A program made the translations under genes and the position numbers. From positions 1-59,048 of IMG/VR virus record IMGVR_UViG_3300047550_004734: a stretch of DNA of 59,048 nucleotides. One strand, given 5' to 3'. This DNA comes from a virus. Below, one piece after another: positions 27,392 through 29,847 of the stretch. Each line of letters opens with the position of its first letter. Within the stretch, counting starts at the first letter, position 1. The notes below the pieces were generated by a model. The model was not told the origin of the DNA. It searched no databases and was given only the letters and a program-made list of their open reading frames with translations.

Positions 27392-27653
27392 AATCAGAAT
27401 TATTTGGAGGAACTACTATATCATTTGGAGTAATAACTACATATTGATATCCATGCATTTCACAAGTTTTTATCATAACTTCGTCTTCAATTTCAATAAT
27501 ATGCATTTCTGGATATCCATCTTCCTCTAGCATCATAGCATATCTGGTGGCATCATCTTCTTCTTGAAAAAGATACAAAATATGTTCTCCATCATCATTA
27601 ATTACTGAATATGCACCTTCTGTTTCCCTACCATTAATTGTTAAAATAAACAT
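27378..27653 (-). CDS. DUF3110-like protein between gp46 and gp47
   Basis: A 91-residue protein. ILYLFQEEDDATRYAMMLEE followed by DGYPEMHIIEIEDEVMIKTC and EMHGYQYVVI matches the DUF3110 pattern (FEEEDDA-RYA-LLE, P-x-V-x-x-I, C-x-x-x-GY). I know that domain almost only from cyanobacteria and their phages, so it is the best host clue in the window. It touches the gp47 stop and overlaps gp46 by 14 bases, so it is translationally embedded in the recombination nuclease operon. Its function is unknown. Confidence 0.85.
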   Translation of the reverse strand: MFILTINGRETEGAYSVINDDGEHILYLFQEEDDATRYAMMLEEDGYPEMHIIEIEDEVMIKTCEMHGYQYVVITPNDIVVPPNNSDYDFI

Positions 27654-28687
27654 TAAGATATCTCACAAGCTTCTTGATATATTTCTTGTATCATTTTTTG
27701 AATTCTTGTTTTATCAAGATTAATTTCTGCCTCCTGAATATATCTATTCAAGATAGAAATAGTATCTTCACTTTCAAGTGCTTCAAATTGCAAAGGTTCC
27801 TGAATATCAAAATTTTCAATAATATTAATCTCAGAAATATTTGAAGAGTAAAGTTTATCAATAAACTTTTCAAACTTTTCAGTATCTGTCTTTTTACGAA
27901 CAATAACTTTTACAATTTTGTTCTCATATTCACGAGTATCAAATGTCTGATAGTTTGTATCCTCATAGTAAATGTTGTAAAACATCTTATAAGGATTGTT
28001 GATGTAAGTATGATCTAATGTTTCAGTGTCAAAAATGGCAAATCCACGAGTATCATTTACATCCGTCCAATAAATCTCATAAGGATTTCCCGTATAGAAT
28101 ACAGTTCCATTATCAGAACGAGTGTGGTAATGACCAGAAAATACCTTTTTGAAGTTTGAAAAAATATTTGCTTCCAGTCCATGTTCCATAATGATCTGAC
28201 GATTTGCACGAAAACCCTGACACTCAAGATGACCCATTGCAATTTTTACCTTAGTCTTTTTAATCATCTTAAGTGATTTTTCTTCATTCTCCATACAAAT
28301 CCAAGGAAGAAGAAGAACATCAAGATTTCCAACTCTGATTTCTATTGGAGAGGAATATGTTTGAATATTTGGATAATCCTTTAGCAGAAGTTGAGGAGAG
28401 TTTGTATTGTTAGTATTCTTATAGTAACTATCATGATTACCAACAATCATATGAACCTCATAGGCTTTAAGAGGTTCAAATACAACTCTTTTTGCCCACT
28501 CTAAACTTTGATAATCAATTGATTTACGACTATCAAAAGCATCACCCATATGAATGACTGTACTAATCCCGTACTGTTCCAGCGTCGGGAAAAACACATT
28601 CTTGTAGAAAAGTTCAAAATAGTCATGAAAAAGTTTTGAACCTTTTCGGGCGCCAAAATGACTGTCTGTTAAAATAGCCACTTTCAT
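27653..28687 (-). CDS. 47: Recombination nuclease subunit, gp47-like (Mre11 family)
   Basis: A 344-residue metallophosphoesterase (T4 gp47 is 339). The five metal motifs are in order: ILTDSHFGARKGSK (residue 5), VIHMGDAFDSRKS, MIVGNHDSYYKN, MGHLECQG and VFSGHYHTRSDNG. It forms the nuclease half of the gp46-gp47 complex. It overlaps the upstream HNH gene by four bases and the DUF3110 gene by one, so translation is probably coupled along the run. Confidence 0.96.
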   Translation of the reverse strand: MKVAILTDSHFGARKGSKLFHDYFELFYKNVFFPTLEQYGISTVIHMGDAFDSRKSIDYQSLEWAKRVVFEPLKAYEVHMIVGNHDSYYKNTNNTNSPQLLLKDYPNIQTYSSPIEIRVGNLDVLLLPWICMENEEKSLKMIKKTKVKIAMGHLECQGFRANRQIIMEHGLEANIFSNFKKVFSGHYHTRSDNGTVFYTGNPYEIYWTDVNDTRGFAIFDTETLDHTYINNPYKMFYNIYYEDTNYQTFDTREYENKIVKVIVRKKTDTEKFEKFIDKLYSSNISEINIIENFDIQEPLQFEALESEDTISILNRYIQEAEINLDKTRIQKMIQEIYQEACEIS

Positions 28688-29214
28688 AATAATTTGTTTC
28701 CTTTACGAATATTTTCGATAGCGGTCAAAATTTGTAAATTATCAGGATGATGTTTTCCGCCTTTTGATATTGGGTGAATATGGTCTACGTGATGAAGAAT
28801 ACCCGTTTCCTCCGTAATTCTAGCACATTCTTTGTAAAAGAGCAATATCTTTTCATACTCTTCGTTAGTTAAAATTGGTGCATCTCCAAACTTTTTAGTT
28901 CTATACCTATAGGTTTTATTATTGACTTTTTCTTTAGTCCTATAAGGTTTCATTAACTCTTTATTATTAAGTTTTTTTAAACCTTTTTCTTTAATGCATG
29001 GAGCACATGACCAATTACTAACATACTTTTCATAACTACCGCATTTTTTACAAGCAGTAGAACCAATATAAGTTTTTTTTCCTTCCTTAATTGCTTCTTC
29101 ACGAGCAGCACTTTTTTGAGTGTATCCTCTTTTCTTTGCTGCTTCTATATTTTTGAGTAAATTCTCTGCTTTTATTTTCTTTCGTTCTTCGGGAGTATAT
29201 TTTGCTTTGGTCAT
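28684..29214 (-). CDS. Free-standing HNH homing-type endonuclease between gp55 and gp47
   Basis: A 176-residue protein from the Met at 29214 (MTKAKYTPEERKKIKAENLL). It has a zinc-ribbon pair (ACKKCGSYEKYVSNWSCAPC, residues 53-72) and a C-terminal HNH nuclease, ILHHVDHIHPISKGGKHHPD, with DNLQILTAIENIRKGNK. An in-frame ATG 20 codons upstream belongs to the other arm of an inverted repeat and is not used. The true start and GAAG-type ribosome-binding site lie inside the 20-bp repeat arm, with a perfect late promoter in the loop, predicting expression only late. Insertion between core genes is typical of mobile homing nucleases. Confidence 0.92.
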   Translation of the reverse strand: MTKAKYTPEERKKIKAENLLKNIEAAKKRGYTQKSAAREEAIKEGKKTYIGSTACKKCGSYEKYVSNWSCAPCIKEKGLKKLNNKELMKPYRTKEKVNNKTYRYRTKKFGDAPILTNEEYEKILLFYKECARITEETGILHHVDHIHPISKGGKHHPDNLQILTAIENIRKGNKLL

Positions 29215-29274
29215 GCTTCTTCTAATTCCAAAAATAATAAAATATTTATAACACTTTGGAATTAGAAGAAGCAT
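29213..29274. promoter_or_regulatory. Perfect 20-bp inverted repeat masking the HNH start codon
   Basis: Arms 29213-29232 and 29255-29274 are exact reverse complements, with a 22-base loop. Read-through RNA from gp55 would fold and bury the HNH ribosome-binding site and ATG. RNA started in the loop lacks the upstream arm and stays open. Confidence 0.93.
29243..29250 (-). promoter_or_regulatory. Late promoter TATAAATA in the hairpin loop
   Basis: A perfect TATAAATA on the minus strand inside the loop, 29 bases upstream of the HNH start. Confidence 0.88.
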
Positions 29275-29771
29275 TAGTACCTTATCTTACTATGGATATT
29301 ATCCTTAATACTATTGTAATCGGAATAGTTGCTTCCGTCAACCGTATTATCGTCCCCGAACACTTCCGAATATCCAGAGCGTTCAAGGATTTTATTTTTA
29401 ATTTCCATTTGACGCTTTTCTCTTTGAATGCGGCGAAGAAAAGCGTAGTGAATAATTTGAGTAAAGTATGCAAAAGGATTTTGTGACTTCTCTGGATTAA
29501 AATTGTGAATATATTGTACACAATTTTCAATACCGTCAGAAATCATATCTTCCTTAAACATATAATTCACGAAGTTTGGTTTAAAGGAAAGATGATTTGC
29601 AATCTTCAGAAAACACTCTCCAATGTACCTAGGAATAGGAGGTTTTGGTTTTCCTTGAATTTCTGCAATTTCTTTATCTTCGCGGTACTTAATTAGAGCG
29701 GCAAGAAACTCTTTATTGTTGACGTAATGCTCTGACCTTTTTCTTTTGGTCATGACTGCTGTTGTTATCAT
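29274..29771 (-). CDS. 55: Late transcription sigma factor, gp55-like
   Basis: A 165-residue small sigma factor that redirects host RNA polymerase to TATAAATA late promoters. It contains PIPRYIGECFLKIANHLSFK, MISDGIENCVQYIHNFNPEK (sigma region 2.1-2.2) and NPFAYFTQIIHYAFLRRIQR (region 2.3-2.4), as in T4 gp55 (185). The start at 29771 has little Shine-Dalgarno sequence; a Met six codons in is an alternative. A TTGTCA-17-TATAAT promoter about 20 bases upstream fits early or middle expression. Its stop codon abuts the inverted repeat of the following HNH gene. Confidence 0.94.
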   Translation of the reverse strand: MITTAVMTKRKRSEHYVNNKEFLAALIKYREDKEIAEIQGKPKPPIPRYIGECFLKIANHLSFKPNFVNYMFKEDMISDGIENCVQYIHNFNPEKSQNPFAYFTQIIHYAFLRRIQREKRQMEIKNKILERSGYSEVFGDDNTVDGSNYSDYNSIKDNIHSKIRY

Positions 29772-29796: not shown

Positions 29797-29825
29797 ATTA
29801 TAACACTTTCAAATATAGTTGACAA
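29797..29825 (-). promoter_or_regulatory. Sigma-70 type promoter for gp55
   Basis: On the minus strand TTGTCA (29825-29820), a 17-base spacer and TATAAT (29802-29797). Initiation near 29790 gives a leader of about 20 bases to gp55. Confidence 0.8.
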
Positions 29826-29847
29826 GGTATTTCAAACTCTGTATAAT
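29819..29847 (+). promoter_or_regulatory. Consensus sigma-70 promoter firing rightward, antisense to the operon
   Basis: On the plus strand a perfect TTGACA (29819-29824), a 17-base spacer and a perfect TATAAT (29842-29847). Its -35 overlaps that of the gp55 promoter. No plus-strand gene follows; the RNA would run antisense into the Sm-like gene and uvsW. Confidence 0.8.

What the first reader, a model, noticed from the sequence alone, without database searches (positions are those of the whole stretch)
29213..29274. RNA switch: late promoter inside the loop of a perfect 20-bp hairpin hides an HNH gene from early translation
Seen: two 20-base arms match perfectly; the downstream arm contains the HNH ribosome-binding site and ATG; the loop holds an exact TATAAATA. 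Known: T4 lysozyme e, soc and I-TevI use this layout, in which early read-through RNA folds and blocks translation, while late RNA starts inside the structure and is free. Inference: this homing nuclease is silenced until late. It is the gene directly after gp55, the factor that would switch it on.
Basis: partly seen in the sequence, partly recalled or inferred. Interest (0 to 1): 0.85.

Follow-up and report, generated by a model that had tools for sequence, protein, structure and literature searches.

The report
Late-switched hairpin on homing nuclease gene
In cyanobacterial viruses, a selfish DNA-cutting gene parked right after the late-gene sigma factor carries an RNA hairpin that should hide its translation start in early messages and a late promoter inside the hairpin loop that should free it later; the trick is known from phage T4, but here it is conserved in dozens of cyanophage variants.

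Summary
In detail: two perfect 20-base arms (29213-29232 / 29255-29274) enclose TATAAATA (29250->29243, minus strand), directly between gp55 (stop codon at 29276-29274) and an HNH nuclease gene (28684-29214). It is the longest short-spacer inverted repeat in the window. Relatives turn the conjecture into a well-supported inference. Sixty-six distinct upstream regions of HNH relatives from uncultivated viruses were examined, almost all at the gp55/gp47 junction. Most have NATAAATA in the loop of a hairpin that pairs the Shine-Dalgarno region, in two unrelated hairpin sequence types, both with compensatory changes. Empty gp55/gp47 junctions (122) have neither. The HNH cassette's phylogeny is decoupled from its neighbours' (rho 0.1 versus 0.75), as for a mobile element. 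Folding predicts SD-region accessibility of 0.00 in read-through RNA and 0.78 in late RNA. The mechanism is that of T4 e, I-TevI/II, segB and Aeh1 mobE, so this is a new member of a known kind, though a strikingly conserved one. No RNA evidence was available.

The parts
29255..29274 (-). 5' arm of the hairpin (present only in RNA that reads through from upstream); begins on the last base of the gp55 stop codon
29243..29250 (-). Late promoter box TATAAATA in the loop; predicted start of late RNA near 29237 (+1, 6 nt after the box), giving a 23-nt leader
   Evidence: box position -13 to -6 as in T4 late promoters (PMC2988020)
29213..29232 (-). 3' arm of the hairpin: covers the ribosome-binding region (-18 to -1) and A,U of the HNH start codon
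28684..29214 (-). Free-standing HNH endonuclease, 176 aa (PF01844; C4 zinc-type cysteines 55/58/70/73; HNH domain ~141-174)
29274..29771 (-). gp55-type late sigma factor (PHROG 234, E 3e-69)
29797..29825 (-). sigma-70-like promoter TTGTCA-17-TATAAT upstream of gp55, likely source of early read-through RNA; similar sequences seen by eye before gp55 in L001-L003
   Evidence: sequences
27653..28687 (-). gp47 recombination nuclease subunit; start codon overlaps the HNH stop (ATGA)

Best explanation
A mobile, free-standing HNH homing-type nuclease cassette sits between gp55 and gp47 of a T4-like cyanophage and carries its own time switch. Early RNA starting at or before gp55 reads through; the 20-bp hairpin forms and buries the HNH ribosome-binding region and start codon, so little nuclease is made (inferred). 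Once gp55 is made, late RNA polymerase starts at TATAAATA in the loop; this RNA lacks the 5' arm, cannot fold, and is translated (inferred). Shown by computation: the anatomy, conservation with compensatory change, presence of the element with the cassette and absence from empty sites, and cassette mobility. Inferred from T4 I-TevI/mobE/e: the timing and the translation block.
For: Hairpin far beyond chance. Of 66 distinct upstream regions of relatives, the great majority have a recognisable type A or type B hairpin, with NATAAAT at -36 in A and about -29 in B. Compensatory change: type A, 8 of 17 pairs changed on both sides (shuffled mean 3.0, 0/500 reach it; slid controls 0-4); type B, 13 cells (shuffled 5.6, 0/500). 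Predicted SD-region unpaired probability, read-through versus late RNA: A 0.10/0.49, B 0.09/0.72, window 0.00/0.78; 12 other late genes of the window 0.49/0.60. The motif is a bona fide late promoter type here (NATAAATA in cyanophages, PMC2984593). All 38 exact hits of two hairpin-promoter cores in 2.9 million viral contigs lie after gp55; 37 precede the HNH and the last reads into its N-terminus at the contig end. 122 empty junctions have no such motif. HNH versus gp55 identity rho 0.10, HNH versus uvsW 0.05, gp55 versus uvsW 0.75. No minus-strand terminator nearby.
Against: No RNA or protein data. This copy lacks a canonical Shine-Dalgarno. The 5' arm abuts the gp55 stop, so ribosomes finishing gp55 could pull it open; TAATG at the gp55 stop is in frame with HNH in this phage (196-aa form), allowing reinitiation that bypasses the block, although this extension is not conserved. 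For L005 and L006 the predicted accessibility gain is nil or small. Some relatives lack the switch: L023 and ACG-2014f (L004) start HNH at or near a preceding stop with no hairpin, L009-L011 have the promoter loop deleted, L021/L098 have the motif without a strong hairpin.
Confidence: 0.85

Rival explanations
1. Translational coupling: the hairpin mainly makes HNH translation depend on ribosomes finishing gp55 (or restarting at TAATG), so HNH is made from early RNA and the loop promoter merely boosts late transcription.
For: The 5' arm begins at the gp55 stop; TAATG is in frame with HNH here; L023 and L004 relatives show stop/start overlap without a hairpin.
Against: The in-frame extension is not shared: relatives have a stop a median 8 codons upstream of the HNH start. 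Coupling does not explain why NATAAATA is held inside the loop in both hairpin types.
Confidence: 0.08
2. DNA-level palindrome: the repeat is an operator or binding site for the nuclease itself (as I-TevI autorepression) or another protein, and arm symmetry reflects protein binding or arm-to-arm correction, not RNA folding.
For: G-U and A-C exceptions do not separate clearly (A 16 versus 7, B 15 versus 15), so pairing counts alone do not prove RNA-level selection; I-TevI is an autorepressor (PMC2988022).
Against: The paired region tracks the SD and start position in both types although hairpin sequences differ; no similarity between the promoter region and the presumed homing site above background (13-15 of 20 versus null 13-17).
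Confidence: 0.05
3. Attenuator or RNA-processing hairpin: it stops or cuts early RNA before HNH/47/46.
For: Stable hairpin between operon genes.
Against: No U-tract and no terminator call on the minus strand; the stem overlaps the start codon; the promoter in the loop is unexplained.
Confidence: 0.02

Closest known systems
T4 I-TevI / I-TevII / I-TevIII translational hairpins (PMC2988022)
   Same: Homing nuclease; RBS sequestered in long early/middle RNA; a promoter placed so that the later RNA lacks the 5' arm. T4 I-TevII read here: CCTCGTATAAATATGAATACGAGG before ATG.
   Different: Those are intron-encoded GIY-YIG/HNH enzymes; here a free-standing HNH at the gp55/gp47 junction, with a longer perfect stem.
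Aeh1 mobE and T4 segB free-standing homing nuclease hairpins (PMC2988022, PMC3014915)
   Same: Free-standing nuclease, RBS-sequestering hairpin, late promoter; mobE is also HNH-type.
   Different: Different insertion sites (nrd genes, tRNA region) and hosts; homology of the present HNH to mobE was not tested. Only reviews were readable (PMC2655525 not held).
T4 e (lysozyme) and soc
   Same: Late promoter within or beside a hairpin over the RBS; e hairpin with TATAAATA in the loop seen.
   Different: Phage functional genes, not mobile elements; enclosing-repeat scores 10.5 and 8.5 versus 20.5 here.
F-CphI (S-PM2) DHHRN/Endo VII homing nuclease of cyanophages (PMC6083498)
   Same: Free-standing homing nuclease in cyanophages; an Endo VII-type gene (PF02945) occupies the same gp55/gp47 slot in isolate S-SRM01, with TATAAATA in a weak hairpin.
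   Different: The window's enzyme is PF01844 HNH, not PF02945.

Membership tests
RBS-hairpin / internal late promoter switch (I-TevI, mobE, segB, e) | SD/start region paired in long read-through RNA | tested here: met
   predicted unpaired probability 0.00 in window; 0.10 and 0.09 means in types A and B
RBS-hairpin / internal late promoter switch (I-TevI, mobE, segB, e) | Late promoter placed so that late RNA lacks the 5' arm | tested here: met
   TATAAATA in loop; predicted start ~29237, downstream of the 5' arm
RBS-hairpin / internal late promoter switch (I-TevI, mobE, segB, e) | Structure conserved by compensatory change | tested here: met
RBS-hairpin / internal late promoter switch (I-TevI, mobE, segB, e) | Early/middle read-through RNA over the gene | tested here: inconclusive
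   sigma-70-like promoter before gp55, no terminator between; no RNA data
RBS-hairpin / internal late promoter switch (I-TevI, mobE, segB, e) | Mapped late 5' end and translation only from late RNA | not testable with these tools
   needs infection or reporter experiments
Free-standing HNH homing endonuclease | HNH catalytic motif | tested here: met
   PF01844 25.7 bits (cutoff 21.4), DHI-P-GG-HHPDN-N-K conserved
Free-standing HNH homing endonuclease | Present/absent at one site in related genomes; phylogeny decoupled from neighbours | tested here: met
   122 empty junctions; rho 0.10/0.05 versus 0.75
Free-standing HNH homing endonuclease | Cuts the empty gp55/gp47 allele and is inherited preferentially | not testable with these tools
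   needs cleavage assay and co-infection
DHHRN / Endo VII (F-CphI) homing family | Endo VII catalytic domain (PF02945) | tested here: not met
   window HNH has PF01844, no PF02945 hit
Intrinsic transcription terminator | G+C-rich hairpin followed by a U-tract on the transcribed strand | tested here: not met
   none on the minus strand

The most novel reading that the evidence does not exclude
The gp55/gp47 junction of cyanophages is a homing hotspot where unrelated nucleases (HNH types A and B, Endo VII/F-CphI-like) have each acquired a gp55-dependent promoter inside an RBS hairpin, so that the parasite is locked to the neighbouring sigma factor's clock; each insertion also adds a late promoter ahead of the recombination genes 47/46.
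Probability: 0.35. Interest if true: 0.6.

Novelty: new member of a known kind. Interest (0 to 1): 0.48.

Why it matters
It carries the T4 'late RNA escapes its own hairpin' switch from a few coliphage and Aeromonas phage genes to a widespread mobile gene of cyanophages, with dozens of natural variants and compensatory changes. It predicts that cyanophage homing nucleases are silenced until late, and that insertion gives genes 47/46 a new late promoter. The Endo VII version at the same site in cultured phage S-SRM01 makes part of this testable.

Tried and rejected
Terminator/attenuator: no U-tract, no call on the minus strand. Known RNA family: only sub-threshold microRNA-precursor models match, a generic long-hairpin effect. 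I-TevI-like operator resembling the homing site: best 20-mer match not above background. G-U versus A-C asymmetry as proof of RNA-level selection: not decisive. sigma-70 extended -10 reading of the loop (TGTTATAAA) instead of a late promoter: judged by eye on the alignments, TG is not kept (TATTATAAATA in several) while ATAAATA is invariant in type A. Endo VII hairpins (repeat scores 9-11.5) are close to the window background (up to 9.5), so they are only suggestive. GIY-YIG identity of the L307 insert was not confirmed by Pfam. Isolates in the phage collection: the closest HNH relatives (ACG-2014f, 46%) lack the hairpin.

Full report
WHAT IS THERE. The window is an uncultivated virus record (59,048 bases) of T4-like cyanophage type (Kyanoviridae relatives). 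On the minus strand the order is uvsW, an Sm-like 'methylamine utilization' gene, gp55 (PHROG 234, E 3e-69), HNH nuclease, gp47, DUF3110, gp46. Between the gp55 stop (29276-29274) and the HNH start (29214) lies only the inverted repeat: perfect 20-base arms 29255-29274 and 29213-29232 with a 22-nt loop holding TATAAATA at 29250->29243. It folds at -31 kcal/mol (z -7.2) and is the longest short-spacer repeat in the window.

THE LOOP MOTIF IS A REAL LATE PROMOTER TYPE. NATAAATA occurs 27 times on the coding (minus) strand and 4 times on the other. The coding-strand sites lie mostly 25-46 nt before open reading frames, several being tail sheath, tail sheath stabilizer, portal and scaffold genes. 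NATAAATA is the reported cyanophage late promoter, and gp55 homologues were found in all cyanophages sequenced by then (PMC2984593). The T4 box starts at -13 and lies about one helical turn before the start (PMC2988020), which puts the HNH late start near 29237.

RELATIVES. Scans with the HNH protein and its alignment gave 46 and 80 loci, partly the same contigs. Almost all good relatives lie between gp55 and gp47. After removing duplicates there are 66 distinct upstream regions. Type A hairpins (CTAACTCC.../...GGAGTTAG, motif at -36) go with a long N-terminus (MTKxKYTPEERK); type B (GCTCCATAGTGT.../...ACACTATGGAGC, motif about -29) with a short one (MxNQ). I read this as hairpin, promoter and N-terminus travelling together. 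NATAAATA stays in the loop in both, with a few variants (L110, L111, L126, L130). L019 (CTATCTCTACA/TGTAGAGATAG) and L024 (CTCCTTAATGT/ACATTAAGGAG) are clear compensatory cases. Counts: type A 8 of 17 pairs changed on both sides against 3.0 in shuffles; type B 13 double-changed cells against 5.6. Relatedness of the sequences makes the shuffle control lenient; the slid controls (0-4 pairs in A, 0-2 in B) agree, though for B the number of pairs with double change (3) does not exceed the shuffles.

ACCESSIBILITY. In read-through RNA the SD region (-14 to -5) is predicted unpaired with probability 0.10 (A) and 0.09 (B); in RNA starting at the predicted late site, 0.49 and 0.72; for the window 0.00 and 0.78. 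Two members (L005, L006) show little or no gain. Twelve other late genes of the window average 0.49 and 0.60, so the HNH behaviour is not general to late genes here.

SPECIFICITY AND MOBILITY. Choosing loci mainly by gp55 rather than by HNH (plus S-SRM01 nuclease relatives and ten reference loci), 122 distinct empty junctions have no NATAAAT near the gp55 end; of 25 unclassified inserts 2 have the motif but no hairpin; of 13 nuclease inserts 9 have motif plus hairpin by a score threshold. Exact hairpin-promoter cores occur in 38 viral contigs, every time right after gp55; 37 precede a recognisable HNH and one contig ends inside its N-terminus. HNH identity is nearly independent of gp55 and uvsW identity (rho 0.10 and 0.05) while gp55 and uvsW agree (0.75); e.g. 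window versus L124: gp55 98%, HNH 49%; window versus L005: gp55 70%, HNH 85%. These are the marks of a homing-type mobile gene.

MECHANISM. Early: RNA from the sigma-70-like promoter before gp55 (TTGTCA-17-TATAAT) reads through, the hairpin forms and the HNH start is hidden. Late: gp55-RNA polymerase starts in the loop, the 5' arm is missing and the start is free. Anatomy and conservation are shown; timing and translation block are inferred from T4 precedents (PMC2988022, PMC3014915; T4 e, soc and I-TevII sequences checked). Weak points: no canonical SD in this copy; the gp55 stop touches the 5' arm; TAATG there is in frame with HNH in this phage, so reinitiation could leak; some relatives have lost the promoter loop (L009-L011) or have no hairpin (L023, ACG-2014f).

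NOVELTY. The layout is known from T4 and Aeh1; the library searches found no report of it in cyanophages, but the library lacks most subscription papers. I file it as a new member of a known kind. The less expected part is the hotspot: an unrelated Endo VII-type nuclease (PF02945) sits in the same slot in cultured S-SRM01 and several uncultivated phages, also with TATAAATA inside a (weaker, AT-only) repeat. Each insertion brings a late promoter ahead of 47/46, which empty sites lack.

Noticed in passing
window 29797-29847: Two opposed sigma-70-like promoters share an overlapping -35 element (TTGTCAA/TTGACAA): a 12-of-12 consensus promoter on the + strand (TTGACA-17-TATAAT) pointing away from gp55, antisense to the upstream Sm-like gene, and TTGTCA-17-TATAAT towards gp55. 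By eye, partly kept in L001-L003. A possible antisense RNA.
   Followed up: partly
L139 (S-SRM01) 1680-1730; L141, L143, L145, L147, L193: An Endo VII-type nuclease (unrelated to the HNH) occupies the same gp55/gp47 slot, preceded by TATAAATA inside a short AT-rich inverted repeat.
   Followed up: partly
L009, L010, L011 just before 3001 / 2107: The hairpin loop with the late promoter is deleted between the arms, leaving TTTCTAACTCGAGTTAGAAA; real deletion or assembly artefact not decided.
   Followed up: no
L023 2995-3003; L004 3320-3490: HNH relatives whose start overlaps a preceding stop codon with no hairpin or promoter; in ACG-2014f a second partial HNH copy seems to lie in tandem.
   Followed up: no
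A1 alignment; L012 versus L025: HNH genes look modular: long or short N-terminus with near-identical C-terminal HNH domains, suggesting recombination between cassettes.
   Followed up: no
L307 2022-2794: Another insert at the gp55/gp47 junction encodes a 240-aa protein with a GIY-YIG-like N-terminus (no Pfam match) and TATAAATA upstream without a convincing RBS hairpin.
   Followed up: partly
window 31757: AATAAATA 28 nt before uvsW, suggesting a late promoter for this recombination gene as well.
   Followed up: no
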